A stretch of 64,000 nucleotides of DNA from positions 1-64,000 of IMG/VR virus record IMGVR_UViG_3300035670_000121; one strand, written 5' to 3'. Source of the stretch: a virus. Below the pieces are notes generated by a model, which saw only the letters and a program-made list of their open reading frames with translations, searched no databases and was not told the DNA's origin. The translations under genes and the position numbers were made by a program. How positions within the stretch are numbered: the first letter of the stretch is position 1; each line of letters begins with the position of its first letter. Positions 9,978-44,921 of the stretch are shown here, in pieces.

Positions 9978-10841
9978 ATGCAAGATGTCAATAAAAAAAT
10001 ACTTTGGCTTGCAGATTTTGATTTAGATCAAGCGGCTGGCGGAGCGCAAAGAAGCGATAAGATTTTAATAGATCATGGTAAATCGTTGGGGTTTGATATT
10101 TTCAAAGTAAATCAATCTAATTTTGGGCCTCATATCAATTTGCACGATTATGATATTTTAATTAGCTCAAACATATGTTCTTTGCATTTCAAAAATAATT
10201 GGCTGTTAGATGAAATATCTAAACATAAGCATCATATTCGCATTGAACATGATTCTAACAACTATCTAACAAACGAACAAAGAAAAAAACTATTTTCTAA
10301 TTGTAAAAAGACATTCTTTTTAACCGAATATCACCATGAATACTTTGTTCAAGATTATGGCGATATATTTCATAACGTAGAAATAGTTCCTGATCCTATC
10401 GATACTGATTTGTTTTGCGATCTAAAAAAAGAAAGAGAAAATAAAATTTTGTATTCTGGTTATATGCATCCTTTAAAAGGAAGCTATGAATTTTTTGATT
10501 TTGTGTTACAGAATACAGATTTAAAGTTTGTTGTATCTGGATGGACTGATTATCCATCTTTAGGCTTTTTATGTAAAAGCGTTCCAAATGTTGAATATAT
10601 TGGAATCACTGATTACTCAAAAATGCCAGAAATTTATAACAAATATTCTCATTTTTACTATAATCCCAATCTAAAAGAACCATTTTGTCGTTCTTTCGCA
10701 GAAGCTTTTTTATGTGGCTGTAAAATAATAAGCAATAAAGTAAATCAAATAGGCAGTTATCAATATTTTGCGAAACACGGAAAAGAAAAATTTATAAACG
10801 ATTGTAAAAACGCACACATAACTTTTTGGAAAAAAATATGA
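9978..10841 (+). CDS. Glycosyltransferase family 1/4-like
   Basis: 287 residues. The N-terminal strand KKILWLADFDLDQAAGGAQR ends in the Gly-Gly-x-x-R loop typical of GT4. EIVPDPIDTDLF (near residue 136) and KILYSGYMHPLKGSYEF begin the donor domain; EPFCRSFAEAFLCGCKII (about 234-251) is the E-x7-E type region. It is the first gene of the plus-strand sugar cluster and overlaps the next gene by 4 bp (ATGA-type coupling). Acceptor unknown. Confidence 0.75.
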   Translation: MQDVNKKILWLADFDLDQAAGGAQRSDKILIDHGKSLGFDIFKVNQSNFGPHINLHDYDILISSNICSLHFKNNWLLDEISKHKHHIRIEHDSNNYLTNEQRKKLFSNCKKTFFLTEYHHEYFVQDYGDIFHNVEIVPDPIDTDLFCDLKKERENKILYSGYMHPLKGSYEFFDFVLQNTDLKFVVSGWTDYPSLGFLCKSVPNVEYIGITDYSKMPEIYNKYSHFYYNPNLKEPFCRSFAEAFLCGCKIISNKVNQIGSYQYFAKHGKEKFINDCKNAHITFWKKI

Positions 10842-11743
10842 AAATAATATTAGTTTGCAACAAAAATTTGCCTCGCGAAAACCTTAACAGAATGGATTCT
10901 GGATACTATAATGTATATATTCCATTAATAGAACTCGGGCATCAAGTTTATTTTTACGATACTATAAATCCAAAAGAAAAAGATTTTTCAAAAGTCGTCG
11001 AGCGATTTCAACCTGATTTAATTTTTTGTTGTTTAACTGGCAATCCTCAAATTACTCCCTATGAACCAATTGAAGAAATTAAACAAATAACTAACTCTGG
11101 TAAAATAAAGACGTTTAATTGGTTTTGCGATGATACTTGGAGGTTCGAAAGTTTTTCTCAGTATTTTTGTCATTATTTCAACGTTTGTTCTACTCCAGAA
11201 TACTCTTATATTCAAAAATTCAAACAATCTGGTTATAGCAATATAATCCTAGGACAATGGCATTGCAATGAAGATTTGTATTTGCTAAATCAAAAAAAAT
11301 ACAATATTGGTTTTTGTGGTGGGTTAAATCAAACAAGGTTAAACTTTTTAAAACAGTTAAATCAACAGGTTTCATATTTTTCAGGATGCTCTTATGAAGA
11401 TATGATCTCATTATATGCATCTTGTAAAATAGTTTTGAATCTTACCATCAATGATAACGATACTCAAAAAAAACGCCAAATGAAATTGCGAATCTTTGAA
11501 GCTACTTGCGCCAACAGTATGTTATTAACTGAAAACGTCGAAAATATAGAAATGTATTATAAACCAAATAATGAAATCATTTGTTTCGAAAATGTCGAAG
11601 AATGTATTGATAGAACTCAATTCTTTTTAAATAATGAAAGCGAAATGCAAAAAATTACCCAAAAAGGAAATGAAAGATTTTTAAAAGAGCATACTTCAAA
11701 AATCAGACTAAACAATCTTCTCAAAGAGATAAATAAAATATGA
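10838..11743 (+). CDS. CgeB-like glycosyltransferase
   Basis: 301 residues from the ATG at 10838 (MKIILVCNKNLPRENLNR). The N-terminal half, with QPDLIFCCLTGNPQITPYE and TFNWFCDDTWRFE, matches the DUF3880-type acceptor domain. KYNIGFCGGLNQTRLNFL begins the donor half, and KLRIFEATCANSMLLTEN is the conserved E-x-x-A-x-G-like region of CgeB/GT1-2 proteins. Overlaps with both neighbours suggest a tightly coupled operon. Substrate unknown. Confidence 0.7.
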   Translation: MKIILVCNKNLPRENLNRMDSGYYNVYIPLIELGHQVYFYDTINPKEKDFSKVVERFQPDLIFCCLTGNPQITPYEPIEEIKQITNSGKIKTFNWFCDDTWRFESFSQYFCHYFNVCSTPEYSYIQKFKQSGYSNIILGQWHCNEDLYLLNQKKYNIGFCGGLNQTRLNFLKQLNQQVSYFSGCSYEDMISLYASCKIVLNLTINDNDTQKKRQMKLRIFEATCANSMLLTENVENIEMYYKPNNEIICFENVEECIDRTQFFLNNESEMQKITQKGNERFLKEHTSKIRLNNLLKEINKI

Positions 11744-12669
11744 AAATTTATATTCAAAGACATTCTGAATTTGCTGGTAAATGGATATATTCTGGATATG
11801 CTCACGCTTGGGCTTATTTAGATCATCAAGTAAAATTTATTTCTCAATTGGAAGAAATTAAAGATGATTCTAGTTATTTATTATTTATTACAGATGGAAT
11901 AGTGACAGAAAATAATCTTAAATATTTAAAAAATAGTCATAAAACTTTTTTGTATGTACAACCCAATGAATTTCCACATCACTGGGGAAAACACCCAAAT
12001 TTTATTTCTGCTTTACAGCCGGACATCGTTAATGAAATTAACGGTCTTAAAAATGTAATAAAATGGTTTTTCGGATATGATACAAAAACATATTTTACAT
12101 TATGGAAAAATGTTGTGTCAATGCCTTTAGCTTATGATAATATAAATTATTTTTCTGATGAAAGTTATAATCATGATTATGATTATGATATTTGTTTTAT
12201 TGGCGGGTTCGCAAACAATGGATTTAATGAAAAAATCACGATAATACAAAACACCCTAAATGCTTTTTTAAAAGCTGGATTTAAATGTGGATTTTCAGTA
12301 GGTCAGAACATATCTCATGAATTAGAAAATTATGTTTTAAATAGATCGAAAGTTGCATTGAACGTACACGATTTATATCAAAGAACGCTAGGGCTAGACA
12401 CAAATGAAAGAACTTTTAAATCGTTAGGATGTAATGGTATTTTAATATCTGATTGCGTTAAACAGTTAGGATTATTATTTCCTCATTGTTATCAATCAAA
12501 TAATCTTGATGAATTAATAGAAAAAACTAAAGAGTTTTGTCAATTGGATCTATATGAATTAAGTTTGCATAAAAAACAAAACAAAAAAATAATAGAAGAA
12601 AAACACACATATATAAAAAGAGTGCAACAATTCTTAAAAATAAATGAAAATTTCCATTATAGTTCCTAA
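11740..12669 (+). CDS. CgeB-like glycosyltransferase
   Basis: 309 residues, related in layout to the preceding gene: YDYDICFIGGFANNGFNEKI (about residues 146-165) opens the donor domain, and TNERTFKSLGCNGILISD matches the E-R-x-F-E-x-x-x-x-G region of CgeB-type GT1 proteins. The N-terminal half carries WIYSGYAHAWAYL. The gene ends inside the next one by 26 bp. Probably adds one sugar of the glycan built by this cluster. Confidence 0.7.
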   Translation: MKIYIQRHSEFAGKWIYSGYAHAWAYLDHQVKFISQLEEIKDDSSYLLFITDGIVTENNLKYLKNSHKTFLYVQPNEFPHHWGKHPNFISALQPDIVNEINGLKNVIKWFFGYDTKTYFTLWKNVVSMPLAYDNINYFSDESYNHDYDYDICFIGGFANNGFNEKITIIQNTLNAFLKAGFKCGFSVGQNISHELENYVLNRSKVALNVHDLYQRTLGLDTNERTFKSLGCNGILISDCVKQLGLLFPHCYQSNNLDELIEKTKEFCQLDLYELSLHKKQNKKIIEEKHTYIKRVQQFLKINENFHYSS

Positions 12670-13366
12670 TTACAATAAAGAAAAATATATTGCAGAATGT
12701 TTAACGTCTTGTTTAAATCAATCATATGAAAATTTACAATTATTAGTTATCGATAACGAAAGTACTGACAACAGCGTAAAAATTATAAAAGAATTTCAAA
12801 ATTCTCACCCTAATAAATTTATATTTGATATTGCAAAAAATATATATCCTCGTTGCTGGGACGAATGTATAGAAAAAGCTTTTGAATACATATCTGGAGA
12901 ATATTATACAATTGTCGCGTCAGATGATTTTATACATAAAGACTATATAAAAAACTGCGTCGAATTCATAAAAATAAAAAACTGTAACTTTTTTCAATCT
13001 TCTTTAAGATGGGTTGATGATAATAAAACTGTCTTAAGAGAGATGGTTCAAAATTATAATGGCGTTGTTGATTTAAAAAATCAATTACTTAAAGGATGTT
13101 TTATAAATTCTCCTACTGTTTTTAGAAAAGTAGGAATAGAAAAGAGTTACAATATAATTGCAAACCCCAAAAAATATTCTGGAGCTGCTGATTATGATTT
13201 ATATTGTCAAATAGTTGATAAAGATTTATATATAGAGAACTGCTTAGAATGGCTTGGTTATTATTACAGGGTTAACGAACTTCAAGCAACATGGTTAATG
13301 CAAAGCGACGAAATTAAATACGATAAACTGATTCAAAAAAAATGGAGAGAAAAATGGATGAATTAA
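12644..13366 (+). CDS. Glycosyltransferase family 2 (GT-A)
   Basis: 240 residues. The N terminus MKISIIVPNYNKEKYIAECL and the motif VIDNESTDNSVKII are the hallmark of GT2, and IVASDDFIHKDYI holds the metal-binding Asp pair. It is an inverting enzyme by family. A retained FINSPTVFRK segment resembles the acceptor region. Overlaps with upstream CgeB-like gene and downstream aminotransferase-fold gene (25 bp each) support a single operon. Confidence 0.85.
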   Translation: MKISIIVPNYNKEKYIAECLTSCLNQSYENLQLLVIDNESTDNSVKIIKEFQNSHPNKFIFDIAKNIYPRCWDECIEKAFEYISGEYYTIVASDDFIHKDYIKNCVEFIKIKNCNFFQSSLRWVDDNKTVLREMVQNYNGVVDLKNQLLKGCFINSPTVFRKVGIEKSYNIIANPKKYSGAADYDLYCQIVDKDLYIENCLEWLGYYYRVNELQATWLMQSDEIKYDKLIQKKWREKWMN

Positions 13367-14667
13367 ATGACATTCTACAGCTGATCAAAAAATATATTGA
13401 TAATAAACAAAAAACTTGGACGCCTGAAAAAGATTGGGTTCAATACGCCGGTCCATATTTTGATTCTGAAGAATATGTCACTTCGATCAAATCTCTTTTA
13501 AATGGCTGGTTAGTGCTTGGTCAAGACGCTATAACTTTTGAAACAAAATTTCCACAACAACTCGGAAAAGAATATGGCATATTAACCAATAGTGGAAGCA
13601 GTTCTAATTTAATTATGATGTCCGCAATGACATCGAAAAGATTATACAATTTCCCTAAAGGAACAAAAGTAATTACTCCAATCGCTGGATTTCCAACTAC
13701 TATTAATCCTATTTTTCAAGTTGGATTTGAACCTATTTTTGTTGATATAGATATAGATACTTTGAATCTGAATTTAGATCAAGTTGAAGAAGCGGCAAAA
13801 AAAGGAGCTAAAATAATCACTTTTGCTCATGTTTTAGGAAACCCTCCAAACATGAATCGATTAATGGAAATCGTAAATCAGCATAATCTTATCTTACTTG
13901 AAGATTGCTGTGATGCTTTGGGTTCTACTTATGACGGAAAACCTCTTGGTAGTTTTGGAGAACTAGCTAGTTGTAGTTTTTATCCTGCACATCACATGAC
14001 TATGGGTGAAGGTGGTTTTGTGGCTTGCAAGACTCAATTACAAGAAATAGTTACTAGAAGCTTCAGAGAATGGGGCCGTGGATGTTATTGCGTTGGAAAG
14101 AAAGCTAATTTATTAAAGAACGGTTCATGCGGTAAACGTTTTTCTAACTGGTTACCAGAACTTCCAGATGAAGAGTTCGATCACAAATATGTTTATGATG
14201 AAATTGGATATAATTTAAAACCAATGGAGCTTCAAGCTTCAATGGGTTTAGCTCAAATGAAAAAACTTCCAGAAATACATGTTTTAAGAAAACGCAATCA
14301 TGCTCTGCTCTGCGAAGCTTTTAGCCAATATGAAGATTATTTTATTATTCCTAAAGCAACTAAATTATCAGACCCAAGCTGGTTTGCATTTGCAATAACT
14401 ATTAAAAATAATGCCCCATTTAAGCGTAAACATATTGTCCAACATTTTGAAAACGCTAAAATTCAAACCCGCCCTTATTTTGCTGGCAACATTATGCTTC
14501 AACCAGCGTATTCAGGTATTATGAATCCCAAAGATGTTATTGAAAAATATCCAATAGCCCGTAAAATCACAACAGATACTTTTTTCTTAGGCACAAGCCC
14601 AGTAATAACTGAGGAACAAATATCTTATATTAAAAAAAACTTAGATTTATTTATTCATAATTTATGA
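13342..14667 (+). CDS. rfbH: RfbH-like 3-dehydratase for 3,6-dideoxyhexose synthesis (DegT/DnrJ family, His instead of Lys)
   Basis: 441 residues, usual length for RfbH (E1). The PMP-binding motif is SFYPAHHMTMGEGG at 212-225, with His where aminotransferases of this fold have the PLP-binding Lys. This is the mark of CDP-6-deoxy-hexulose 3-dehydrase. Cys248, Cys250 and Cys263 lie where E1 binds its [2Fe-2S] cluster, but one of the four expected Cys seems to be missing. GSSSNL and DCCDALGSTY are other conserved fold motifs. It would remove the C3 hydroxyl of a 4-keto-6-deoxy sugar, and needs a reductase partner not seen here. Confidence 0.85.
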   Translation: MERKMDELNDILQLIKKYIDNKQKTWTPEKDWVQYAGPYFDSEEYVTSIKSLLNGWLVLGQDAITFETKFPQQLGKEYGILTNSGSSSNLIMMSAMTSKRLYNFPKGTKVITPIAGFPTTINPIFQVGFEPIFVDIDIDTLNLNLDQVEEAAKKGAKIITFAHVLGNPPNMNRLMEIVNQHNLILLEDCCDALGSTYDGKPLGSFGELASCSFYPAHHMTMGEGGFVACKTQLQEIVTRSFREWGRGCYCVGKKANLLKNGSCGKRFSNWLPELPDEEFDHKYVYDEIGYNLKPMELQASMGLAQMKKLPEIHVLRKRNHALLCEAFSQYEDYFIIPKATKLSDPSWFAFAITIKNNAPFKRKHIVQHFENAKIQTRPYFAGNIMLQPAYSGIMNPKDVIEKYPIARKITTDTFFLGTSPVITEEQISYIKKNLDLFIHNL

Positions 14668-15620
14668 AAATAGTTTATATTACTGGTTGTTTAGGTTTAA
14701 TCGGTTCTCATTTAACAAGACTTTGTTTACAAAAAGGATATTATGTAATCGGACTAGATAAAATAACATATGCGGCAAGACCAGATTTACTAAAAGAATT
14801 TAACAAGTATGAAAAATTTAAATTTGAACAAAAAGATATTTGCGATTTAGATAGACTCGTAGATTGCGATTATTTTATAAACGTAGCCGCCGAAACACAT
14901 GTCGATAATTCAATAAGAAAAAGTGATGATTTCATCAAAACAAATATAGATGGCGTTTATAACATCCTTGAGTTATTAAAAACTTACAAAAGAGAAGGAA
15001 TGATTGTTCCTACTTTTTTACATTTTAGCACAGATGAAGTTTATGGCGATATTTCTAACGGAGAACACATAGAAACAGATATTTTAAAACCAAGCAATCC
15101 ATATTCCGCAACAAAAGCTGCTGCTGATCAATTAATACTTGCTTGGGCTAGAACTTATAAAATAAATTATATTATAATTAGACCTACCAATAATTATGGA
15201 ATTGGGCAGTATGTCGAAAAATTAATTCCAAAAGCTTGTAAATGTTTAACGCTTGGCAAAAAAATACCGCTTCACAACCAAGGCACACCTTTTAGAAATT
15301 GGTTACACGCCAAAGATACAGCTAATGGAGTTGTTAAAATAATTGAAAGCGGAATCAAAAATGAAATATTTAATATTGCAGGAGGATTTGAACAAAGCAA
15401 TATCAAAACAGTCGAAAAAATCATTTCGGAATATTTTGGACATTTACCTTGTAATTACCAAGAAAAGTACTTGGATTTATCTATTTCTAGAGAAGGTCAA
15501 GATGTTAGATATGCCTTAAATGATAATAAATTAAGAAGTTTAGGTTGGATTCCTGAATGCAGTTTCGATCAAGAACTCAAAGAAATAGTTGATTTCTATA
15601 AGAAAAATTTTATATGGTAA
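14664..15620 (+). CDS. NAD-dependent nucleotide-sugar 4,6-dehydratase (RmlB-like)
   Basis: 318 residues, extended SDR. NAD-binding GCLGLIGSH is at residues 8-16, the active-site STDEVYGD near 123-130, the catalytic YSATKAAADQ near 149-158 and RPTNNYGIGQY follows. The TDEVYG form fits dTDP-glucose or related 4,6-dehydratases better than CDP-glucose ones. It is slightly shorter than typical RmlB (about 350). It would supply the 4-keto-6-deoxy intermediate for the neighbouring RfbH-like enzyme. ATGA overlap with the previous gene and 7 bp with the next. Confidence 0.85.
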   Translation: MKIVYITGCLGLIGSHLTRLCLQKGYYVIGLDKITYAARPDLLKEFNKYEKFKFEQKDICDLDRLVDCDYFINVAAETHVDNSIRKSDDFIKTNIDGVYNILELLKTYKREGMIVPTFLHFSTDEVYGDISNGEHIETDILKPSNPYSATKAAADQLILAWARTYKINYIIIRPTNNYGIGQYVEKLIPKACKCLTLGKKIPLHNQGTPFRNWLHAKDTANGVVKIIESGIKNEIFNIAGGFEQSNIKTVEKIISEYFGHLPCNYQEKYLDLSISREGQDVRYALNDNKLRSLGWIPECSFDQELKEIVDFYKKNFIW

Positions 15621-16258
15621 ATAAAAACAATAAAACACTTGTTAAAAGAATACTAGAAATAGCATATAAATATAAACTAAGCCATCTAAGTAGCTATTTT
15701 TCTTCGATAGATATAATAGATAATATTTATAAAAACAAAAACGAAAAAGATATTTTCATTTTATCTAACGGACACGCAGCGTTAGCTTTATACGTCATTA
15801 TAGAAAAATATTTAAAAATAAATGCTGAAGAGCTATTTTTAAAACACGGCGGCCATCCTCATTTAGATCCACTTAACGATATACATTGTTCAACCGGAAG
15901 TTTAGGGATGGGTATCACAGTGGCTGTAGGTCGGGCTTTAGCAAATCAACATAAAAAAATTCATTGTTTAATAAGTGATGGCGAATGTGCCGAAGGTTCA
16001 ATCTGGGAATCTTTAAGAGTCATAAAAGAAAAGAAAATTTCAAATATTGAAGTACATTGCAATTGCAACGGATATGCGGCTTATGACCCTGTAGATGCGG
16101 AATATTTAAAGAATAGATTATTCTCTTTTTTACCCTCAATAAAATTCCATCAAACAAACGGTAATTTTTTTCCTTTTATCAAAGATTTAAACGGTCATTA
16201 TCATATCATGTCTCAAGCTGATTACGAAAAAAGTTTAGAGATACTAGAAACAATATGA
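15614..16258 (+). CDS. Transketolase, N-terminal (ThDP-binding) subunit
   Basis: 214 residues. The pattern matches the pyrophosphate-binding half of split transketolases: SNGHAALALYV, GHPHLDP, STGSLGMGITVAVGRALA and the ThDP/Mg motif SDGECAEGSIWESL (GDGE-type, about residues 120-133). The final Asn of the GDG..N motif appears in NCNGYAA. The downstream gene supplies the pyrimidine-binding half with a 4-bp overlap, so they form one heteromeric enzyme. In sugar clusters such pairs can attach a two-carbon branch; pentose metabolism is the alternative. Confidence 0.85.
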   Translation: MVNKNNKTLVKRILEIAYKYKLSHLSSYFSSIDIIDNIYKNKNEKDIFILSNGHAALALYVIIEKYLKINAEELFLKHGGHPHLDPLNDIHCSTGSLGMGITVAVGRALANQHKKIHCLISDGECAEGSIWESLRVIKEKKISNIEVHCNCNGYAAYDPVDAEYLKNRLFSFLPSIKFHQTNGNFFPFIKDLNGHYHIMSQADYEKSLEILETI

Positions 16259-16728
16259 GAAAAAAATTTAGTCAAATATTACTTAACAAAATGCAAGAAA
16301 ATAATAATATTTATTTTCTAACAGCAGATTTAGGATACGGATTATGGGATGAAGTTAGATCAGCTTTTCCAAATAGAGCTTATAATATTGGATCTTCAGA
16401 ACAATTAATGTTAGGTTGCGCAACAGGATTTGCTTTGGAAAATAAAATTCCAGTCTGTTATTCTATAACTCCATTTATCTTATACAGACCTTTTGAATTC
16501 ATACGAAATTATTTGAACGAAGAAAAAATTCCTGTAAAATTAGTTGGGGGAGGCAGAAATAAAGATTATGGATATCTTGGATTCAGCCACTGGGCAGAAG
16601 ACGATATCAAAATAATGCAATGTTTTAATAATATAAAACTTTTTAAACCTGAAGAAAAAGATCTAGAAACGATTACCGATGAATTTTTATTTAATGAAAT
16701 GCCATCATATTTAAATCTTAAAAAATGA
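16255..16728 (+). CDS. Transketolase, C-terminal (pyrimidine-binding) subunit
   Basis: 157 residues. Pyr domain features: IYFLTADLGYGLWDEVRSAFPNR-type opening (residues 19-41), YNIGSSEQLMLGCATGFA with the conserved catalytic Glu, and SITPFILYRPFEFIRN. Usual partner subunits are about 300 residues because they carry a third domain; this one stops after the Pyr domain. It may therefore be a minimal form or need another subunit. Coupled to the previous gene by overlap. Confidence 0.8.
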   Translation: MRKKFSQILLNKMQENNNIYFLTADLGYGLWDEVRSAFPNRAYNIGSSEQLMLGCATGFALENKIPVCYSITPFILYRPFEFIRNYLNEEKIPVKLVGGGRNKDYGYLGFSHWAEDDIKIMQCFNNIKLFKPEEKDLETITDEFLFNEMPSYLNLKK

Positions 16729-17498
16729 GAATTTTATTAACAGGTTCTAACGGTTATATAGCAAAAAGCTTTCATAAAAGATTTAATAATCAATATAAAA
16801 TAATTTCCCTTAATAGAAATATAATTGATTTAACAGATATAAATAAAGTAGACCAATTTTTTAGCGAGAATGAAAAATTCGATTTTGTTTTGCATACAGC
16901 AATAAAAGGAGGAAACAGACTGATACAAGACAGCAGTGAAATTCTTGATCAAAACATTCAAATTTATTTAAACTTAATCAAAAACAAACAAAGATATAAT
17001 AAATTTATTAATTTAGGATCTGGAGCCGAAATACATCAAAAAGACACATTTTATGGATTAAGTAAAAAAGTCATAAATGAATCATTAAAAGATAAAGTTA
17101 ATTTTTTTAATATTAGGATTTTTGGCGTATTTGACGAAAACGAAGAAAATAGAAGATTCATAAAAAATAATATTATAAACTACATAAACAAAAAAAATCT
17201 AATAATACATCAAGATAAAAAAATGGATTTTTTTTACATGCAGGATTTATTATCACTAATTGATTTTTATATAAATTCTTTAAATCCGCCTAAAGAAATA
17301 GACTGCACTTATGAAAATTCTTATTTTTTATCTGAAATAGCTAATATAATCAATCAATTAGATTTACATAAATCTAATATAATTATTCAAAATAACGATA
17401 ATTCTTCAAACTATATTGGCAAATATCAAAAAACAATAAACTTTATAGGCTTAACAGAAGGCATAAAGAACACCTATAAAAAAATACTATCAACATGA
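16725..17498 (+). CDS. NAD-dependent epimerase/dehydratase (SDR)
   Basis: 257 residues. MRILLTGSNGYIAKSFHKRF is the Gly-rich NAD(P)-binding start; FINLGSGAEI supplies the Ser region and FYGLSKKVINE (Y-x-x-x-K) the catalytic pair. Short for an extended SDR. Likely a 4-reductase or epimerase completing a nucleotide sugar in this operon. It could act on the product of the RfbH or transketolase step; the exact substrate is not visible. Confidence 0.75.
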   Translation: MRILLTGSNGYIAKSFHKRFNNQYKIISLNRNIIDLTDINKVDQFFSENEKFDFVLHTAIKGGNRLIQDSSEILDQNIQIYLNLIKNKQRYNKFINLGSGAEIHQKDTFYGLSKKVINESLKDKVNFFNIRIFGVFDENEENRRFIKNNIINYINKKNLIIHQDKKMDFFYMQDLLSLIDFYINSLNPPKEIDCTYENSYFLSEIANIINQLDLHKSNIIIQNNDNSSNYIGKYQKTINFIGLTEGIKNTYKKILST

Positions 17499-18424
17499 AA
17501 ATAGGTTGTTTGATATATTCTACAACAGGCAGATATGAAATATTTCAAAAATGGGCCACAAATAGTTTTGTTAAACACCACCAAGATATATTATTATTTT
17601 CTCTCAATGAAAAAAGTGATATCATTACAGAAACAAATAAAAAATATCCTCAAATCAATTCCAGCACACCAATCGGAATTTTTAAAATGTATGTAGCAGC
17701 ATTTTTATTTGATACATTCAAGCTAGATAAAATAATTATGCTTGGAGCAGATACTATTACTTGCGACAGGCTTTCAGAATTTGTTGAAGACAATGAGCAT
17801 GATATTCTAACCTCTTTAGATTATCCCTATGTTCTACAAACAAAAAATTTAATTACAAATCAACCGTATATATTATCTTCTTTCACAAAAGAAAATCATG
17901 TGAATGCTGATGTAGTCTGTTTCAACAACATAGATTCAATACATGAAGTTATTGAAAGCTCTTTAAAATTAAAAAGTGAATACCATGAGCAAGCAGGACT
18001 TAATTACGTATGCAATGTATTAAATAAATTTAAAACAAAAATAGTAGACTCTGATTTCGAATCTAGTGAAATTTGTTACAATGTCAGAGCAAAAGGTAAT
18101 TTATGCATAATACCTGTGTTCCTAAATAAAATAATTGTTTTTCAAAACGGACAATTTATATTTAAAGACGAAACATACAAATCAAACCAAGAAGTATATT
18201 TCAAATATATAAAAAATTTTAAAATCAAAAACGATAAACTTTTTACAGGAACCCATAGAAATATCATAAAAGAAAAACAAATCAAAGTTTGGCATTTTTG
18301 TGAAGGTTTCGGATGCTTATCAGACTCAGATTTTTATAAAAAAATTGATAATTGGATTAATCAAGGATTCAATAAAGAAACAAAACAATTTTTTGAAGAG
18401 CAGTGCGACTGCGTTTTTAATTAA
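17495..18424 (+). CDS. Putative GT-A fold nucleotide-sugar transferase
   Basis: 309 residues. The first half resembles GT8-like transferases: FKMYVAAFLFDTFKLDKIIM followed by LGADTITCDRL (a D-x-D-like motif around residues 84-94) and a later VNADVVCFNN. The C-terminal half has GTHRNIIKEKQIKVWHFCEG, reminiscent of the conserved His/Trp acceptor end of GT8. No E. coli-type match recognised. It lies mid-operon between sugar-modifying enzymes. Confidence 0.55.
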   Translation: MKIGCLIYSTTGRYEIFQKWATNSFVKHHQDILLFSLNEKSDIITETNKKYPQINSSTPIGIFKMYVAAFLFDTFKLDKIIMLGADTITCDRLSEFVEDNEHDILTSLDYPYVLQTKNLITNQPYILSSFTKENHVNADVVCFNNIDSIHEVIESSLKLKSEYHEQAGLNYVCNVLNKFKTKIVDSDFESSEICYNVRAKGNLCIIPVFLNKIIVFQNGQFIFKDETYKSNQEVYFKYIKNFKIKNDKLFTGTHRNIIKEKQIKVWHFCEGFGCLSDSDFYKKIDNWINQGFNKETKQFFEEQCDCVFN

Positions 18425-18428
18425 AAAT

Positions 18429-19349
18429 ATGAAAATTTTAATCACAGGCGGTTCTAGCATGGTCGGAAAACACCTACAAAAAATATTTCCAAAAGCTATT
18501 TATTTAACTAGCAAAGATTGCGATTTAACTAATTACAATGAAACCTGCAATATAATTAAAAAAATAAAACCAAATACTGTTATTCATCTTGCCGCAAAAG
18601 TTGGTGGAATTATGGATAACATAAATAAGCCTGTTGATTTTTTTGAGCAAAACATATTAATAAATACAAATACGTTAAAAGCTAGTTATGTAAATGGTAT
18701 TAATAAATTCATTGGAATTTTAAGTACATGCGTTTATCCTGATAAATTAGAAGATAATCAATATCCAATAGAAGAAAAACTATTGCATTTAGGACCGCCA
18801 ACACCAACTAATTTTGCCTACGGATATGCCAAAAGATGTCTCGCAGTACAAATAGATGCATACAATAAACAATACGGGACAAAATATTCTTCATTGATTC
18901 CTTGCAATCTATATTCCGAAAACGATCATTTTACTGGCGACAAAGCTCATTTTTTATCTAGCTTAATATATAAAATACTCAAAGCAAAAAAAGAAAATCA
19001 AAATACAATAGAGCTGTTTGGAACTGGTTCTCCATTAAGACAATTTATGTATGCTGAAGATCTTGCAAAAGCAATTGTTCAAACGCTTGAATTGAATGAA
19101 GCTTTTAACTTTAATATTTGTACTGATGAAAACAAAAGCATTAAAGAAATAGCAGAAATAGCGCTTTTAGCATGTGAAGCTAGCCATTTTGAAATCAAAT
19201 GGAATAAAAATAAACCAGACGGTCAATTCAGAAAAGACGCTTCGTCAAAATTGTTTTTGCAAAAGTTTCCAGAATTTAAGTTCACCTCTTTATTTGAAGG
19301 AATACAAAAAACTTATAATATCATAAAGAATGAAAAGCTGGAAGCTTAA
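18429..19349 (+). CDS. GDP-sugar epimerase/reductase (Fcl / ColC-like)
   Basis: 306 residues from the ATG at 18429. NADP-binding MKILITGGSSMVGKHL, active-site STCVYP (residues ~100-105), YGYAKRCLAVQ (Tyr-x-x-x-Lys) and FGTGSPLRQFMYAEDLA follow GDP-L-fucose synthase closely. The family includes ColC, which does the C5 epimerisation and C4 reduction for GDP-L-colitose. With the ColD-like and Gmd genes just downstream, ColC activity is plausible. Fucose synthesis from Gmd alone is the alternative. Confidence 0.85.
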   Translation: MKILITGGSSMVGKHLQKIFPKAIYLTSKDCDLTNYNETCNIIKKIKPNTVIHLAAKVGGIMDNINKPVDFFEQNILINTNTLKASYVNGINKFIGILSTCVYPDKLEDNQYPIEEKLLHLGPPTPTNFAYGYAKRCLAVQIDAYNKQYGTKYSSLIPCNLYSENDHFTGDKAHFLSSLIYKILKAKKENQNTIELFGTGSPLRQFMYAEDLAKAIVQTLELNEAFNFNICTDENKSIKEIAEIALLACEASHFEIKWNKNKPDGQFRKDASSKLFLQKFPEFKFTSLFEGIQKTYNIIKNEKLEA

Positions 19350-20481
19350 CGATTCAAATTTTACCTTCATAGATAGACTTAAAATATCTGCATTTTTTCT
19401 AAACAACAAAAATTTTTGGACGATGACAGATAAAGTTGCTTGTTTTGAAGAAAAAATAGCTGACTTTACAAATAACAAGTATTCTATTTTTGTTTCAAGC
19501 GGATCAACCGCGAACACGATTTTAGCTTATTATCTAAAAGATAATTTTTATACAGATAAAAGAAACACAATCGTTTTCCCATCAACAACATGGATTACTT
19601 CTGTTTCTCCTTTTATAAGAGAAGGATTTAAGCCAAAATTTATTGATATTACGCTCGATGATTTAGCTATCGATCTGAACAAACTAGAATCTTTTTTAGA
19701 TAAAAACCATGAAGAAGTTTCATGTGTTTTTGTCACCAGTTTATTAGGTATCGTTCCTAATATTGATAAACTGGTAGAAATTAAAAACAAATATAATATC
19801 AACATAATGATGGATAATTGCGAAAATACTTTTGGTAAATTTAATAATAAAAATATCAGTAGTTATTTTACATCTACAACAAGCACATATTTCGGCCATC
19901 AACTACAAAGCGTTGAAGGTGGATTTATATTTACGAATGACGAAAAAGAAAGAGATTTATTTTTAATGTATCGAAATCATGGAATGACACGAAGCATCAA
20001 AAACAATTCTCAAATAAAAAACAACGATGTTGACAGCAGATTTGATTTTTATTTACAAGGTAATAACTTTAGGAATTCAAACATACATGCTTTAATAGGA
20101 CTTTTAGATCTTAATAGAGTTGATAAATATATAAATGATAGGCAAACACTATATAAATACTTTTGCAATAAAGTTAACGATTCTATTTTAAAATATAAAA
20201 ACAATGACAAAAATGAAAATTCTTTATTTTGCATACCTTTAATTTTTAATAATAAAATTAAAAAAGAAAAGACAGAACAATTTTGTCAACAAAACAATAT
20301 CGAATCCAGACCCATCATATCTGGCAATTTATTAAGACAAACATGTTTAAAAAAATATGATGACTATTATAATTTTCCAAATAGCGAATACATTCATCAA
20401 AACGGTTTCTATGTAGGTTTAAATTCAAAAGTGTCTATCAAACAGCTAGATACATTAATTAATTTCATCAATAATATTTAA
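19330..20481 (+). CDS. ColD-like GDP-4-keto-6-deoxymannose 3-dehydratase (DegT family, His active site)
   Basis: 383 residues, close to ColD (388). The active-site segment STYFGHQLQSVEGG has His190 where aminotransferases have Lys; ColD uses His188 in the same way to deoxygenate C3 with PMP and glutamate. FVSSGSTANT and IMMDNCENTFGK are the cofactor phosphate and Asp regions. No Fe-S cysteines, consistent with ColD rather than RfbH. Overlaps the previous gene by 20 bp; Gmd follows by one base. Substrate inferred from neighbours. Confidence 0.8.
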   Translation: MKSWKLNDSNFTFIDRLKISAFFLNNKNFWTMTDKVACFEEKIADFTNNKYSIFVSSGSTANTILAYYLKDNFYTDKRNTIVFPSTTWITSVSPFIREGFKPKFIDITLDDLAIDLNKLESFLDKNHEEVSCVFVTSLLGIVPNIDKLVEIKNKYNINIMMDNCENTFGKFNNKNISSYFTSTTSTYFGHQLQSVEGGFIFTNDEKERDLFLMYRNHGMTRSIKNNSQIKNNDVDSRFDFYLQGNNFRNSNIHALIGLLDLNRVDKYINDRQTLYKYFCNKVNDSILKYKNNDKNENSLFCIPLIFNNKIKKEKTEQFCQQNNIESRPIISGNLLRQTCLKKYDDYYNFPNSEYIHQNGFYVGLNSKVSIKQLDTLINFINNI

Positions 20482-20482
20482 A

Positions 20483-21538
20483 ATGAGTAAAAATATTTTA
20501 ATCACAGGCGTTACTGGACAAGATGGCGCAAACATGGTTGAGTATCTTTTGAAAAATACTAACCATAAAATTTTTGGAATGATACGCAGATCTTCCAATA
20601 TTAATTTATCTAACTGTCAGGTATTTAAAAATGAACCAAGATTTCAGTTTGAATACGGTGATTTATCTGATTCACAAAGCATCAATAATATTATAAGAAA
20701 AGTAGATCCTGATTATTTTATTAATTTTGCAGCGAACAGTTTTGTTGGTTGTAGCTGGCAAATGCCAGAACAAATGTTTGATATAAATAGTTTAGGAGTA
20801 TTAAGGTGTTTAGAAGCAATTAAAAATCTTAAACCTTCTTGTAGATTTTATTCTGCTGGATCTAGCGAAGAGTGGGGAAATGTAGAATATAGCCCTCAAG
20901 ACATGAAGCATCCTTTGAAGCCTAGAAGTCCATATGGAGCAAGCAAAGCTTCAGCAAGGCATATAGTTAAAGTATATAGAGAATCATATAATTTATATGC
21001 TGTACATGGTATTTTATTTAATCATGAAGGAACTAAAAGAGGAGAAGAGTTTGTCACTCGAAAAATAACAAAAGGAGTTGCGAGAATTTATCATGCAATT
21101 AAGAATTCACAAATCTTTCAACCTATTGAATTAGGTAATTTAGACGCTAGAAGAGATTGGAGTGACAGTGAAGATTTTGTTGATGGTGTTTGGAAAATGT
21201 TAAATCAAGAATCGCCAAAAGATTATATATTAGCTAGTGATGAAACCCATTCAATACGAGAGTTTGTTGAGAAAGCTTTTAATTATGCTAATGTTGAAGG
21301 ATATTGGCACGGCAACGGAGTTGATGAAAAATATTATATTCATGATAGATATTTAGAAGATAAACAAGTTGAATCGCCTTGTTTAGTTAAAATAAATCCA
21401 AAATTTTATAGACCCGCTGAAGTTGAATTATTATTAGGAGATTCAAAAATAGCTAGAAAAGAATTAGATTGGGAACCAAAAATTTCATTTGACAAACTGG
21501 TCGAAAAAATGGTACGCTTTGACATAGATAATTTTTAA
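20483..21538 (+). CDS. gmd: GDP-mannose 4,6-dehydratase
   Basis: 351 residues, normal length. NADP-binding GVTGQDGANMVEYLL, the family motif FGMIRRSS, active-site SAGSSEEWG and YGASKASARHI (Y-x-x-x-K), then LFNHEGTKRGEEFVTRKIT and LGNLDARRDWSDSEDFVD, all classic Gmd. It makes GDP-4-keto-6-deoxymannose from GDP-mannose, the substrate for both Fcl/ColC and ColD. It is the last gene of the sugar cassette. Confidence 0.93.
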   Translation: MSKNILITGVTGQDGANMVEYLLKNTNHKIFGMIRRSSNINLSNCQVFKNEPRFQFEYGDLSDSQSINNIIRKVDPDYFINFAANSFVGCSWQMPEQMFDINSLGVLRCLEAIKNLKPSCRFYSAGSSEEWGNVEYSPQDMKHPLKPRSPYGASKASARHIVKVYRESYNLYAVHGILFNHEGTKRGEEFVTRKITKGVARIYHAIKNSQIFQPIELGNLDARRDWSDSEDFVDGVWKMLNQESPKDYILASDETHSIREFVEKAFNYANVEGYWHGNGVDEKYYIHDRYLEDKQVESPCLVKINPKFYRPAEVELLLGDSKIARKELDWEPKISFDKLVEKMVRFDIDNF

Positions 21539-24087: not shown

Positions 24088-24312
24088 ATGAAATACACAA
24101 CAACAGCAACATCTGGCCCCGGATCAGGACCAACAACCGGACCAGTTAAACCCAAAACCACAACAAAACCTAGTACAACAACAGGTCCCGCAACTGGCCC
24201 CGGATCAGGACCAACAACTGGGCCATCCAAATCCAAAACCACAACAAAACCTAGTACAACAACAGGTCCTGCAACAGGCCCAAATAGTACAACTGGCCCC
24301 AAAAAGAAGTAA
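24088..24312 (+). CDS. Low-complexity Thr/Gly/Pro repeat protein
   Basis: 74 residues consisting of two ~27-residue repeats (GPGSGPTTGP..KTTTKPSTTTGPAT) and a Lys tail. DNA of the two copies is almost identical (81-bp period). A complementary-strand frame stays open through the repeat by composition only. The ATG at 24088 follows the previous stop by three bases. Could be a flexible, possibly glycosylated appendage; no function shown. Confidence 0.5.
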   Translation: MKYTTTATSGPGSGPTTGPVKPKTTTKPSTTTGPATGPGSGPTTGPSKSKTTTKPSTTTGPATGPNSTTGPKKK

Positions 24313-41035: not shown

Positions 41036-42184
41036 ATGAGCGAATATAATCCTCTTTACAATGTCAACGCAAACAATGATGGCAAAAACGATACATTCGA
41101 TTTTGCTATGCCTGACATTCCAGATCCAGTAGAACCAGCACAAGTCGAATTAAAAGATAAAGACGCTGTAGGTTTTAAGTTTGGTTTTATTGGAGCTGGT
41201 CAAGGAGGAAGTAAACTAGCAGAAACCTTTTCTCAAATTGGTTATGCTAGAGTTGGCGTAATTAATACTGCTGATCAAGATTTAGCAACTATCAATGTTA
41301 AAAACAAGTTGAAGTTTGGCGAGCAACAAGGCGCTGGCAAAAATAGAGAGTTCGCCAAACAAGCATTTATTAATCACAAAGAAGATGTAGTTGATTTTAT
41401 TAAACAGTCTGTTGGAACTGATATAGATCGTGTGTTTGCTGTTGTTGGAGCTGGCGGTGGCACTGGAGCTGGTGTTTGTTCAGAATTAGTTAAAACTCTT
41501 AAAGAATATCAAACAACAGTCAAAGCTACATCTCCATACGTTGGATTGATATTGGCGTTACCTAAGCTATCTGAAGGTAAGAAGGTAAGTGAAAACGCTT
41601 ATGCTACACTAAAAGAAGCTTGTAAATTAGTTGAAGATAAAATCGTTTCTCCATTAATTATTCTAGATAATGAAAAGATTAATAACTTATATCCTAAATT
41701 ATCTGTAAATAAGTTCTGGCAAGTAGCAAATGCTAATATTTGTGCGTTATTTCATTTATTTAATAATATTATAACTAAAAATAGTCAATATAGTACATTT
41801 GATACAAATGATTTTCGTACTGTTTTAGATTCTGGTATTATGGTGTTTGGCGCAGCTAATATCACTGAATTTAAAAATGAAGCTGAAATTTCTAAAGCTG
41901 TTAGAGAAAATCTAAAGCGTAACGTTCTCTGTGGTGAATTAGATCTAGCTACTGGCAGTGTTGCTGCCGCTGTAGCAATCGGTGATGAAAAAACTCTAGA
42001 TAGTATTCCTCAAGAATATCTAGATAACGCTTTCAATCAATTAAATAGAACTCTAAAAACTAATAGCACAGTTCATCAAGGCATTTATAAAGGCGTTAAA
42101 GATGGTTTATCTATATTTACTGCTATTGGTGGTATATCAACTCCAAATGGTAAATTAGAAGCGCTTCTAAAAGCTAGTCAATAA
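41036..42184 (+). CDS. FtsZ/tubulin-like GTPase
   Basis: 382 residues. FGFIGAGQGGSKLAETF opens the nucleotide-binding domain, GAGGGTGAG at 138-146 is the tubulin/FtsZ signature, and TNDFRTVLD at 257-265 aligns with the catalytic T7 loop (N-x-D-F). An acidic, Pro-rich ~40-residue N-terminal extension precedes the domain. It could form filaments that centre or transport phage DNA or capsids, as PhuZ does in jumbo phages. The sequence resembles FtsZ more than PhuZ in the loops I can judge. Assembly is not shown. Confidence 0.85.
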   Translation: MSEYNPLYNVNANNDGKNDTFDFAMPDIPDPVEPAQVELKDKDAVGFKFGFIGAGQGGSKLAETFSQIGYARVGVINTADQDLATINVKNKLKFGEQQGAGKNREFAKQAFINHKEDVVDFIKQSVGTDIDRVFAVVGAGGGTGAGVCSELVKTLKEYQTTVKATSPYVGLILALPKLSEGKKVSENAYATLKEACKLVEDKIVSPLIILDNEKINNLYPKLSVNKFWQVANANICALFHLFNNIITKNSQYSTFDTNDFRTVLDSGIMVFGAANITEFKNEAEISKAVRENLKRNVLCGELDLATGSVAAAVAIGDEKTLDSIPQEYLDNAFNQLNRTLKTNSTVHQGIYKGVKDGLSIFTAIGGISTPNGKLEALLKASQ

Positions 42185-42465: not shown

Positions 42466-43035
42466 ATGAATCTACAAATTTATAAGCCTAATTCGAAGAA
42501 TACCGGCTGCGCTATTAGTTTTCAAATTTCCCAAAAGAACGATCAAGAGCCTCAGTTCTACGTAAATTGTATTGCACAACATTCTTGGGACGAACAAAAG
42601 AAAACAGGTTCTTTTGCAGAGAGCAGGAATAATCCCGCAAAGACTATCGCCATCAAGTTCAATGAATTTGAACTTGGTGAAATAATTAACGCTTTTCAAA
42701 CAAAAGCTAATTATTCTGCTTTTCATTCAAGCGAGTCAAACAAGACTCAAATTAAGTTTGGTCCATATGAAAAGAAGAAGGGTACTGGCGAATATACTGT
42801 GACTTATACAGCTTATGGATTATCATTTATCAGAAATGGAGCTGATACGTTTAAGGTTCCACTTGAACCTGGCGAAATGGTTCGATTAGTAGCTTTCATC
42901 AATAAGTTTTATTCATTGCTAGACGATACTCGAAAGATAGCTCCAAAGGGGGATTATAAGAATCAAGCTTCAAAAGCTCAAGCTCCAGCGCCAGCGAAGA
43001 CCAATAAAGTTGAAACTGAAGATTCTGAATTCTAA
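42466..43035 (+). CDS. Single-stranded DNA-binding protein (PC4-like phage SSB family)
   Basis: 189 residues from the ATG at 42466. MNLQIYKPNSKNTGCAISFQ, FNEFELGEIINAF, YSAFHSSESNKTQIKFGPYE and the central YGLSFIRNGADTF follow the conserved order of a phage ssDNA-binding family with PC4/whirly-like fold. The end is a Pro/Ala linker and acidic tip (VETEDSEF), as in SSB and T4 gp32, which bind partners that way. It would coat ssDNA at the fork. The hairpin at the start codon hints at self-regulation. Confidence 0.75.
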   Translation: MNLQIYKPNSKNTGCAISFQISQKNDQEPQFYVNCIAQHSWDEQKKTGSFAESRNNPAKTIAIKFNEFELGEIINAFQTKANYSAFHSSESNKTQIKFGPYEKKKGTGEYTVTYTAYGLSFIRNGADTFKVPLEPGEMVRLVAFINKFYSLLDDTRKIAPKGDYKNQASKAQAPAPAKTNKVETEDSEF

Positions 43036-44921
43036 TGCGTAAAAAAAGAATTCTTATTCATAGTAATCATTGCAAAATGTTTACCGGATTCGGTAAGCAT
43101 AAGAAAAATTTGTTAAAATATTTGCACAACACAGGTAAATACGAAATCATTGAATTCAGTAATGGTTATCCGTGGTCTTCTGATGAGTTGCAGTATACTC
43201 CTTGGAAAAGCTATGGATCTTTACCTGATGATCCTGAACATCAAAAAGAAATAGCTAACGACGAAAGAAAAAAATCAACTGCTGGTTATGGCGGTGAAAT
43301 GATTGATCGGGCTATTTATGAATTAAAACCTGGTATTTATTTAGGAATAGAAGATATTTGGGGATTTAATGGATTTTTTGAAAAGCCTTGGTGGAACAAG
43401 ATTCATTGTATTATACATACAACACTAGATAGTTTGCCTATTTTGCCAGACGCTGTAAATGTCGCGTCTAAAATAAAAAATTATTTTGTATGGGCAAGTT
43501 TTGCAGAAAAAGCTTTACACAAATTAGGTCATACACATGTTAAAACAGTACATGGAACGTTAGATGTTAATAATTTCTATAGACTTCCAGACGATGCTCG
43601 TTCAAGACTTAGAAAACATTTTAATCTAGAAAAAAGTTTTATAATTGGATTTGTATTTAGAAATCAACTAAGAAAATCAGTCCCTAATTTGCTTGATGGA
43701 TTCAAAATGTTTGATGAAGCAAATCCATCTGCTAACGCTAAATTATTATTGCATACATTTTGGAACGAAGGTTGGGATATTCATAGATTATTAAAAGAAA
43801 AGGACATTCCTCTTAATAAAGTACTTACAACTTATTATTGTAAAAACTGTTACAATTATCATATCAAGCCATTTCAAGGGCAGATTTTAAAATGCGATTA
43901 TTGTCAACATCCTAATTCATGCGAAACAACAAATATTAAAAGTGGCGTAAATGAACAACAGTTGAATGAGATTTATAATTTAATGGATGTTTATTGCCAT
44001 CCTTTTACAAGCGGTGGACAAGAAATACCTATTCAAGAAGCAAAACTTACTGAACTGATAACATTAGTAACTAATTATAGTTGTGGTGAAGATTCTTGTA
44101 GCTCTGAAAGCGGCGGCTTCCCTTTAGACTGGGCTGAATACCGAGAACCCGGTACTCAATTTATTAAAGCTTCAACACTACCTACAAGCATTAATGAAAA
44201 ATTAAAAATGGTATACGAAATGGCTTTTGATGAAAAAGTATTACTTGGTAAAAAATCACGTAACTATGTAATCAATAAATATAGTATTGAAATCGTAGGA
44301 AAATATTTTGAAGATTTATTTGATTCATTTCCTGAAGTCGAATTTGATTATGAGAAAGTGGATATGACTCCAAATGCATATTTTGAACCCAACAATTCTT
44401 TAAATGATAAAGAATGGATTGAGTCATTGTATGAAAATCTTTTAAAACGAAAAGATTCGTCTGGCGTTATTCATTGGTTGCAACGCTTGAAGACTGATTT
44501 AAAAAGACAAGATGTATTAACTTATTTTAGAAAAGTTGCGCTATCAGAAATACAAAAAGCTGAATTTGAGAAAATGCTCAAAATTCTAAATGAAGATAAA
44601 AGTCTTAAGAAAATCGCTTATATTCAACCTGATGGAGCTGAAGAAGTTTTGATCGCTACATCAATTCTTCCTTCTATTCAAAAAGTTTATCCTGACCATA
44701 AAATTTATTTCTTTACAAAAAGCGAGAATTTCGATTTAATAAATTCACATCCAAATGTTTATAAAACATTATCGTATTTTAATAAATTAGATGATCCTCT
44801 TTACCTAGAAGGAAAAGGCAATTTAAATAAATATTTTGATATTGTATTTGCTCCGTATTTATCAATTAGAAACAATTATTTTAGAAACGCTCAAGATATT
44901 TTAGAGTATCAAACAACATGA
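43035..44921 (+). CDS. Large glycosyltransferase with zinc-ribbon insert and DUF4214-like region
   Basis: 628 residues. GT-B start MRKKRILIHSNHCKMFTGFG, donor domain from FIIGFVFRNQLRKSVPNLLD, and VYCHPFTSGGQEIPIQEAKL as the E-x-x-x-x-x-x-E region. Inserted at ~275-300 are two Cys pairs (YYCKNCYN, LKCDYCQH), a zinc-ribbon not usual in this fold. EWIESLYENLLKRKDSSGVI (about 468-487) resembles a DUF4214 repeat, and the C terminus (IAYIQPDGAEEVLIATSILP) looks like the start of a GT9-type domain that continues in the next gene. Confidence 0.7.
   Translation: MRKKRILIHSNHCKMFTGFGKHKKNLLKYLHNTGKYEIIEFSNGYPWSSDELQYTPWKSYGSLPDDPEHQKEIANDERKKSTAGYGGEMIDRAIYELKPGIYLGIEDIWGFNGFFEKPWWNKIHCIIHTTLDSLPILPDAVNVASKIKNYFVWASFAEKALHKLGHTHVKTVHGTLDVNNFYRLPDDARSRLRKHFNLEKSFIIGFVFRNQLRKSVPNLLDGFKMFDEANPSANAKLLLHTFWNEGWDIHRLLKEKDIPLNKVLTTYYCKNCYNYHIKPFQGQILKCDYCQHPNSCETTNIKSGVNEQQLNEIYNLMDVYCHPFTSGGQEIPIQEAKLTELITLVTNYSCGEDSCSSESGGFPLDWAEYREPGTQFIKASTLPTSINEKLKMVYEMAFDEKVLLGKKSRNYVINKYSIEIVGKYFEDLFDSFPEVEFDYEKVDMTPNAYFEPNNSLNDKEWIESLYENLLKRKDSSGVIHWLQRLKTDLKRQDVLTYFRKVALSEIQKAEFEKMLKILNEDKSLKKIAYIQPDGAEEVLIATSILPSIQKVYPDHKIYFFTKSENFDLINSHPNVYKTLSYFNKLDDPLYLEGKGNLNKYFDIVFAPYLSIRNNYFRNAQDILEYQTT

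What the first reader, a model, noticed from the sequence alone, without database searches (positions are those of the whole stretch)
18429..21538. Complete Gmd-ColD-ColC type route to GDP-colitose on a phage
Seen: Gmd (20483), a DegT-family protein with His190 in place of PLP-Lys (as in ColD), and an Fcl/ColC-like epimerase/reductase (18429), contiguous and overlapping. Established: these three steps convert GDP-mannose to GDP-L-colitose in O-antigen gene sets. Inference: the phage supplies a 3,6-dideoxyhexose for its own particles or to remodel the host surface during infection, perhaps blocking superinfection.
Basis: partly seen in the sequence, partly recalled or inferred. Interest (0 to 1): 0.75.

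Follow-up and report, generated by a model that had tools for sequence, protein, structure and literature searches.

The report
Phage genes for two dideoxy sugars

Summary
Three intact, tightly packed genes lie at 18429-21538: an Fcl/ColC-like epimerase/reductase, a DegT-family protein whose His190 aligns with catalytic His188 of E. coli ColD, and a Gmd. The DegT protein's best solved relative is ColD (E 6e-47) and its 12 best fold matches are all ColD. The catalytic residues checked are kept. GDP-L-colitose is the best-supported product but is not shown: the ColC-like and ColD-like proteins fall outside the clades of the E. coli enzymes, and Gmd and ColC score below curated cut-offs. It is not unique. 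Cyanophages ACG-2014f and S-CAM7 carry the same contiguous trio, and 42 of 80 fetched viral loci have all three genes within 6 kb. The larger find is next door at 13342-17498: a second, E1/RfbH-type 3-dehydrase (over its family cut-off), a 4,6-dehydratase, a split transketolase and an SDR. In 27 of 28 assessable viral RfbH loci the gene is accompanied by a thiamine-diphosphate carboligase of one of three types, the same three classes that a review links to branched-chain sugars. So the phage probably makes colitose plus a yersiniose-type branched sugar. What they decorate, host or virion, is unknown.

The parts
18429..19349 (+). ColC/Fcl-like GDP-4-keto-sugar 5-epimerase/4-reductase (306 aa); Cys101, Tyr131, Lys135 and His174 correspond to Cys109, Tyr136, Lys140 and His179 of E. 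coli Fcl
   Evidence: Pfam Epimerase 9.5e-47; NCBIfam Fcl 190 bits, below its 500 cut-off; best solved relatives GDP-fucose synthases; residue mapping
19330..20481 (+). ColD-like GDP-4-keto-6-deoxymannose 3-dehydrase (383 aa), catalytic His190 at 19897-19899 in place of the aminotransferase Lys
   Evidence: phmmer ColD 2gms 6e-47, E1 2e-18; AF2 model pLDDT 88, top 12 PDB fold matches all ColD, TM 0.88; residue mapping
20483..21538 (+). Gmd, GDP-mannose 4,6-dehydratase (351 aa), 41% identical to E. coli Gmd; Ser127, Glu129, Tyr151, Lys155 at catalytic positions
   Evidence: Pfam 4.9e-108; TIGR01472 356 bits, cut-off 415; alignment
17495..18424 (+). probable GT-A (GT8-like) glycosyltransferase, upstream neighbour of colC also in L008, L009, L011; candidate transferase for one of the two sugars
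   Evidence: no Pfam/NCBIfam match; AF2 model pLDDT 66, Foldseek prob 1.0 to glycogenin and LgtC, low TM 0.3-0.55; synteny
16725..17498 (+). SDR-family oxidoreductase (257 aa), putative reductase of the branched sugar
   Evidence: Pfam Epimerase 7.8e-15; relatives in 20 of the 34 viral RfbH loci
16255..16728 (+). transketolase pyrimidine-binding half (157 aa), without the Transketolase_C domain; putative catalytic Glu in NIGSSEQLMLG
   Evidence: Pfam Transket_pyr 3.2e-12, no PF02780; sequence
15614..16258 (+). transketolase ThDP-binding half (214 aa): SNGHAALALY, STGSLGMG, SDGECAEGSIWE motifs
   Evidence: Pfam Transketolase_N 1.8e-8; NCBIfam transketolase 2.2e-25
14664..15620 (+). NDP-glucose 4,6-dehydratase (318 aa), RmlB-like
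   Evidence: TIGR01181 300 bits, cut-off 365; CDP-glucose model only 74 bits
13342..14667 (+). E1/RfbH-type [2Fe-2S] 3-dehydrase (441 aa): FYPAHHMTMGEGG, His217, Cys190, Cys248, Cys250, Cys263
   Evidence: NCBIfam RfbH 462.9 bits, over the 423 cut-off; PDB E1 3bcx 1.7e-99; residue mapping
12644..13366 (+). GT2-family glycosyltransferase
   Evidence: Pfam 5.1e-23
11740..12669 (+). Glyco_trans_1_2-family glycosyltransferase
   Evidence: Pfam 6.8e-10
10826..11743 (+). Glyco_trans_1_2-family glycosyltransferase
   Evidence: Pfam 4e-23
9978..10841 (+). GT-B glycosyltransferase (Glycos_transf_1)
   Evidence: Pfam 1.8e-6

Best explanation
The trio makes GDP-L-colitose. Gmd (20483) turns host GDP-mannose into GDP-4-keto-6-deoxymannose. 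The ColD-like enzyme (19330) uses PMP and His190 to remove the C3 hydroxyl. The Fcl/ColC-like enzyme (18429) epimerises C5 and reduces C4. Colitose is 3-deoxy-L-fucose, so an Fcl-family enzyme acting on the ColD product with its usual stereochemistry gives GDP-colitose, whether or not it descends from a ColC. Shown: genes, folds, catalytic residues, synteny. Inferred: activities, product, acceptor. In the same operon-like run (13342-17498) the phage probably makes a second, branched 3,6-dideoxy sugar: dehydratase, RfbH-type 3-dehydrase, split transketolase adding a two-carbon unit to the 4-keto group, then an SDR reductase. That second route is inferred from gene content and from the swapping of carboligase types among related viruses. 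The local glycosyltransferases presumably attach both sugars to a surface glycan or a virion protein during infection.
For: Intact contiguous trio. ColD is the best solved relative by sequence (164 bits against 70 for E1) and by predicted fold. ColD positions His188, Asp159, Trp88, Ser183 and His215 are kept as His190, Asp162, Trp88, Ser185 and His217. Fcl/ColC residues Cys101, Tyr131, Lys135, His174 kept. Gmd catalytic positions kept. Order ColC-ColD-Gmd kept in related viruses L008, L009 and L011 at 58-98% identity. Cyanophages ACG-2014f and S-CAM7 have gmd-colC-colD contiguous. Of 80 viral ColD-like loci, 42 have both partners within 6 kb and 70 have at least one; the printed motif shows His at the active position in 78, and for the other two an upstream EGG was printed instead. 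Canonical bacterial ColD loci: 46 of 58 with Gmd, 51 of 58 with ColC/Fcl. Pathway chemistry: PMC8987622. Branched-sugar half: and PMC12247030.
Against: No biochemistry is known to me for any member of this viral lineage. The ColC tree puts the phage enzyme apart from E. coli ColC, nearest human GDP-fucose synthase. The DegT tree puts it with cyanophage and other His-type proteins, outside the canonical ColD clade. In the bacterial part of that wider clade only 5 of 17 loci have Gmd nearby, so some members may use other substrates. Gmd and ColC score under curated equivalog cut-offs. Ser187 of ColD is Gly189 here. The contig is incomplete, and no colitosyltransferase was identified. E1-type dehydrases need a reductase (E3 or ferredoxin) that I did not find in the window.
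Confidence: 0.72

Rival explanations
1. The trio makes a different GDP-3,6-dideoxyhexose: ColD works as stated but the reductase does not invert C5, giving for instance a tyvelose-configured or 4-epimeric D-sugar.
For: The phage reductase lies on its own branch, far from both E. coli ColC and E. coli Fcl; no stereochemistry is known for it.
Against: The epimerisation residues Cys109 and His179 of Fcl are both kept (Cys101, His174), and the nearest characterised row in the tree is human GDP-fucose synthase, an epimerising enzyme.
Confidence: 0.1
2. Gmd and the Fcl-like enzyme make GDP-L-fucose, and the ColD-like enzyme sends only part of the Gmd product to a 3-deoxy sugar; fucose is the main product.
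For: The phage ColC-like enzyme is nearer to human GDP-fucose synthase than to ColC. Cyanophages S-SCSM1 and DSL-LC03 carry gmd plus fcl without an annotated ColD neighbour (PMC9602691).
Against: colC overlaps colD by 20 bases and the order is kept in three related viruses; most bacterial ColC-like genes in canonical colitose loci sit directly upstream of colD.
Confidence: 0.1
3. The 3-deoxy-4-keto product of ColD is the acceptor of the transketolase pair, so the whole cluster is one GDP-linked branched-sugar pathway.
For: Two bacterial loci have a ColD-like His protein near a transketolase pair without RfbH in the stretch held (L067, L111).
Against: In the viral loci fetched with RfbH the carboligase tracks RfbH plus the 4,6-dehydratase, mostly without ColD in the stretch held. 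Many viruses carry ColD with Gmd and ColC but no carboligase matched within 6 kb.
Confidence: 0.05
4. The DegT protein is an ordinary sugar aminotransferase (perosamine-synthase type).
For: Same DegT superfamily.
Against: No Schiff-base Lys; His190 invariant in 22 aligned relatives; perosamine synthase scores 62 bits against 164 for ColD. The literature ties Lys-to-His to 3-dehydration (PMC8987622).
Confidence: 0.02

Closest known systems
Gmd-ColD-ColC GDP-colitose pathway of E. coli O55 / Yersinia O antigens
   Same: Same three enzyme families, His in place of Lys in the dehydrase, overlapping colC-colD order, Gmd usually adjacent in bacteria
   Different: 30-41% identity to the E. coli proteins; ColC and ColD outside the clades holding the E. 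coli enzymes; gmd lies downstream of colD; on a virus
gmd-colC-colD trio of cyanophages ACG-2014f and S-CAM7
   Same: Contiguous trio on a phage, His in the DegT protein, glycosyltransferases next to it
   Different: Different gene order (gmd first), about 33-43% identity, much larger cyanophage genomes; annotated there only as 'hypothetical protein', 'aminotransferase' or 'putative CDP-4-keto-6-deoxy-D-glucose-3-dehydrase'
Yersiniose A pathway (E1/RfbH, YerE, reductase)
   Same: 4,6-dehydratase + [2Fe-2S] E1-type 3-dehydrase + ThDP carboligase + SDR
   Different: The carboligase here is a split transketolase without its C-terminal domain; the dehydratase is RmlB-like rather than CDP-glucose type; no E3 reductase found
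Split transketolases proposed for miharamycin/amipurimycin
   Same: Two-gene transketolase next to a keto-sugar pathway, proposed to add a hydroxyacetyl unit
   Different: The review says the 13 putative cases found by genome mining all come from Streptomycetes (PMC12247030); these are in viruses beside an E1-type dehydrase

Membership tests
ColD (GDP-4-keto-6-deoxymannose 3-dehydrase) | DegT/aminotransferase fold | tested here: met
   PF01041 9.7e-45; AF2 model, top 12 PDB matches ColD at TM about 0.88
ColD (GDP-4-keto-6-deoxymannose 3-dehydrase) | His in place of the PLP-binding Lys | tested here: met
   His190 aligns with ColD His188, invariant in A5
ColD (GDP-4-keto-6-deoxymannose 3-dehydrase) | no [2Fe-2S] cluster, unlike E1/SpnQ | tested here: met
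   no CYC...C cluster motif in the sequence; far closer to ColD than E1
ColD (GDP-4-keto-6-deoxymannose 3-dehydrase) | falls in the clade of the characterised ColD | tested here: not met
   sits in a separate clade of His-type dehydrases with cyanophage ColD-like proteins; quick tree, long branch
ColD (GDP-4-keto-6-deoxymannose 3-dehydrase) | removes the C3 hydroxyl of GDP-4-keto-6-deoxymannose | not testable with these tools
   needs enzyme assay
ColC (GDP-colitose synthase) | Fcl-family SDR with catalytic Cys, Tyr, Lys, His | tested here: met
   Cys101, Tyr131, Lys135, His174
ColC (GDP-colitose synthase) | next to a ColD gene | tested here: met
   overlaps it by 20 bases; same in L008, neighbours in L009 and L011
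ColC (GDP-colitose synthase) | orthologous to E. coli ColC | tested here: not met
   separate 99* clade, nearest human GDP-fucose synthase
Gmd (GDP-mannose 4,6-dehydratase) | curated equivalog score | tested here: not met
   356 bits, cut-off 415
Gmd (GDP-mannose 4,6-dehydratase) | TGVTGQDG motif, FNHE..RG..FVTRKI motif and catalytic residues | tested here: met
   alignment with E. coli Gmd, 41% identity
E1/RfbH 3-dehydrase | curated equivalog score | tested here: met
   462.9 bits over 423
E1/RfbH 3-dehydrase | catalytic His and four [2Fe-2S] cysteines | tested here: met
   His217, Cys190, Cys248, Cys250, Cys263
E1/RfbH 3-dehydrase | partner reductase E3 | tested here: inconclusive
   none recognised among the window proteins searched, but not every window or genome protein was searched and the host may supply one
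Yersiniose-type branched-sugar pathway | ThDP carboligase with the E1-type dehydrase | tested here: met
   transketolase pair; 27 of 28 assessable viral RfbH loci have one of three ThDP types
Yersiniose-type branched-sugar pathway | carboligase is YerE-like | tested here: not met
   transketolase type here; YerE/AHAS-like in 20 relatives

The most novel reading that the evidence does not exclude
Phages carry a modular pathway for branched 3,6-dideoxy sugars: a conserved RfbH-dehydratase core, usually with an SDR, plus an exchangeable ThDP carboligase (YerE-like, E1-dehydrogenase-like or a minimal split transketolase acting on a ketone). Some pair it with a colitose route, so that related viruses differ in the exact sugar they put on the host surface or virion.
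Probability: 0.5. Interest if true: 0.75.

Novelty: new variant of a known kind. Interest (0 to 1): 0.55.

Why it matters
3,6-Dideoxy sugars are classically known as immunodominant tips of enterobacterial O antigens. Finding a full route on many uncultivated phages suggests that viruses themselves choose unusual surface sugars during infection. The swapping of three types of thiamine enzyme at one step suggests selection for changing the sugar, and gives candidates for testing whether a transketolase can use a ketone sugar as acceptor, which a 2025 review (PMC12247030) lists as untested in vitro.

Tried and rejected
I first thought the residue in the Fcl motif GPHDNF was the catalytic His179 and that its loss marked ColC. 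Numbering the E. coli protein showed that this residue is His170. His179 is in NSHVIPALL and is kept here, so the idea was dropped. A viral search with the transketolase half as single query found nothing; transketolase relatives came in only through the RfbH and ColD searches. A follow-up transketolase alignment failed twice on wrong coordinates and was not pursued. A genome search for E. coli Fcl through L007 was not possible; E. coli strain ER1709 was used instead. Paper searches for phages with colitose, dideoxyhexoses or branched-chain sugars gave no paper on the subject; most papers of subscription journals are not held.
Full report
What is there. The window is the first 64 kb of an 85,615-base virus record, about 31% G+C, with DNA polymerase, primase, helicase, a Lon-like protease and a virion protein related to those of Puniceispirillum phage HMO-2011 and cyanophages. 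A + strand run from 9978 to 21538 holds glycan genes and ends just before a class II ribonucleotide reductase. The three genes of the finding are at its 3' end. They are intact and packed tightly: 18429-19349, 19330-20481, 20483-21538.

The trio. The DegT-family protein is the most telling. Its best solved relative is E. coli ColD (164 bits; E1 dehydrase 70, perosamine synthase 62). The catalytic His188 of ColD aligns with His190. A predicted structure (mean pLDDT 88) has ColD entries in all 12 first places of a PDB fold search, TM about 0.88. According to the review PMC8987622, the Lys-to-His exchange is the most important difference between 3-dehydratases and aminotransferases, and ColD, unlike E1, has no iron-sulfur cluster. 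The upstream protein is an Fcl-family SDR that keeps Cys101, Tyr131, Lys135 and His174, the equivalents of Cys109, Tyr136, Lys140 and His179 of E. coli Fcl (that these are the catalytic residues is from general knowledge). The downstream protein is a Gmd with the TGVTGQDG and FNHE..RG..FVTRKI motifs and Ser/Glu/Tyr/Lys at the catalytic positions. It is diverged: 356 bits against a cut-off of 415.

Is it a member of the colitose family? In function, probably; in descent, not in the narrow sense. A quick tree of His-type DegT proteins puts the four phage proteins (window, L008, L009, L011) on a long branch with cyanophage ColD-like proteins and some bacterial ones, apart from the clade of E. coli ColD. 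A tree of ColC/Fcl proteins puts the phage enzyme on its own, nearest human GDP-fucose synthase. Canonical bacterial ColD loci are strongly linked to Gmd (46 of 58) and ColC/Fcl (51 of 58). In the bacterial part of the wider clade this is weaker (5 and 10 of 17), so a His-type DegT protein of that clade does not by itself prove a GDP-linked substrate. In the phages the trio itself supplies that link. Colitose is 3-deoxy-L-fucose, so an Fcl-type enzyme acting on the ColD product with its usual stereochemistry gives GDP-colitose whatever its ancestry (inference from known chemistry).

Not unique to this phage. Synechococcus phages ACG-2014f and S-CAM7 carry gmd, an Fcl-like gene and the His-type DegT gene side by side. 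Their records call the last one 'hypothetical protein', 'aminotransferase' or 'putative CDP-4-keto-6-deoxy-D-glucose-3-dehydrase'. A scan of IMG/VR with a ColD alignment gave 434 related stretches, of which 80 were fetched. Of these 80, 42 have both Gmd and ColC/Fcl within 6 kb and 70 have at least one. The printed motif shows His at the active position in 78; for the other two (L228, L230) the script printed an upstream EGG instead of the active-site motif. Many of the loci are near-copies, so these counts are not independent events.

The second pathway. It is followed by an RmlB-like 4,6-dehydratase (14664), the two halves of a small transketolase (15614, 16255) and an SDR (16725). Relatives of the RfbH protein brought in 34 viral loci. 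Leaving out loci whose contig ends before the neighbourhood is complete (L018, L019, L022, L027, L028, L042), 27 of the remaining 28 have a thiamine-diphosphate enzyme in the same neighbourhood; L025 does not. It is of three types, confirmed by Pfam on examples: acetolactate-synthase/YerE-like, single or split (20 loci); dehydrogenase-E1-like pair (4); split transketolase (3, plus the window and, from the ColD scan, L176). Several loci are near-copies (for example L012/L013, L021/L024, L035/L036/L037/L041, L038/L039). The review PMC12247030 names decarboxylase/YerE, alpha-keto-acid-dehydrogenase and transketolase types as the ThDP enzymes that branch keto sugars, and says that the transketolase cases, split genes from Streptomycetes, are still untested in vitro. 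I therefore read 13342-17498 as a yersiniose-type branched-sugar cassette with a transketolase in the carboligase slot. This is inference. The phage transketolase lacks the C-terminal domain, which the bacterial pair of L067 has, and no reductase partner for the E1-type enzyme was recognised.

Other parts. The protein at 17495 has no family match; its model (pLDDT 66) matches glycogenin and LgtC folds at low TM, so it is probably a GT-A transferase. It precedes colC in L008, L009 and L011 too, which makes it a candidate for transferring one of the two sugars. Four more glycosyltransferases lie at 9978-13366.

Role. Whether the sugars go to the host surface, to block superinfection or change recognition, or to virion proteins cannot be decided from sequence. 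Papers found speak of LPS-modifying genes in cyanophages in general, and of GDP-fucose genes in S-SCSM1 (PMC9602691). I found none on phage colitose or phage branched sugars in the library held.

Verdict. As a phage trait it is a further, diverged member of something already present in cyanophages. The neighbouring cassette with its exchangeable carboligase is the more surprising part, and is why the whole is rated a new variant of a known kind.

Noticed in passing
window 13342-17498: Second 3-dehydrase (E1/RfbH type) with 4,6-dehydratase, split transketolase and SDR: probable branched 3,6-dideoxy sugar cassette.
   Followed up: yes
L009-L042 (viral RfbH loci): The thiamine-enzyme slot near RfbH is filled by YerE-like, E1-dehydrogenase-like or transketolase-like genes in related viruses.
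   Followed up: partly
window 16255-16728: Transketolase pyrimidine half of only 157 aa without the C-terminal domain, nearly the same length in L009 and L176; the bacterial pair in L067 is full length.
   Followed up: partly
window 41036-42184: Tubulin/FtsZ-family protein (TIGR00065 70 bits, Pfam Tubulin 8e-11) on a phage record of about 86 kb.
   Followed up: no
window 43035-44921: 628-aa protein with a phage glycosyltransferase match (phrog_2170) and a DUF4214 domain.
   Followed up: no
window 24088-24312: Short ORF of GPTTGP-type repeats that is open on both strands.
   Followed up: no
L067 10720-12437 and L111 5513-7299: Full-length split transketolase pairs near His-type ColD-like genes in a Pelagibacteraceae genome and an unnamed bacterium.
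   Followed up: partly
L153 (Synechococcus phage S-H68) 9007-10302: RfbH-like gene annotated as CDP-4-dehydro-6-deoxy-D-glucose 3-dehydratase with motif HHICTIEGG; no thiamine enzyme is annotated within 9 kb.
   Followed up: partly
window 56338-57306: UvdE-family UV endonuclease (Pfam 5e-41).
   Followed up: no
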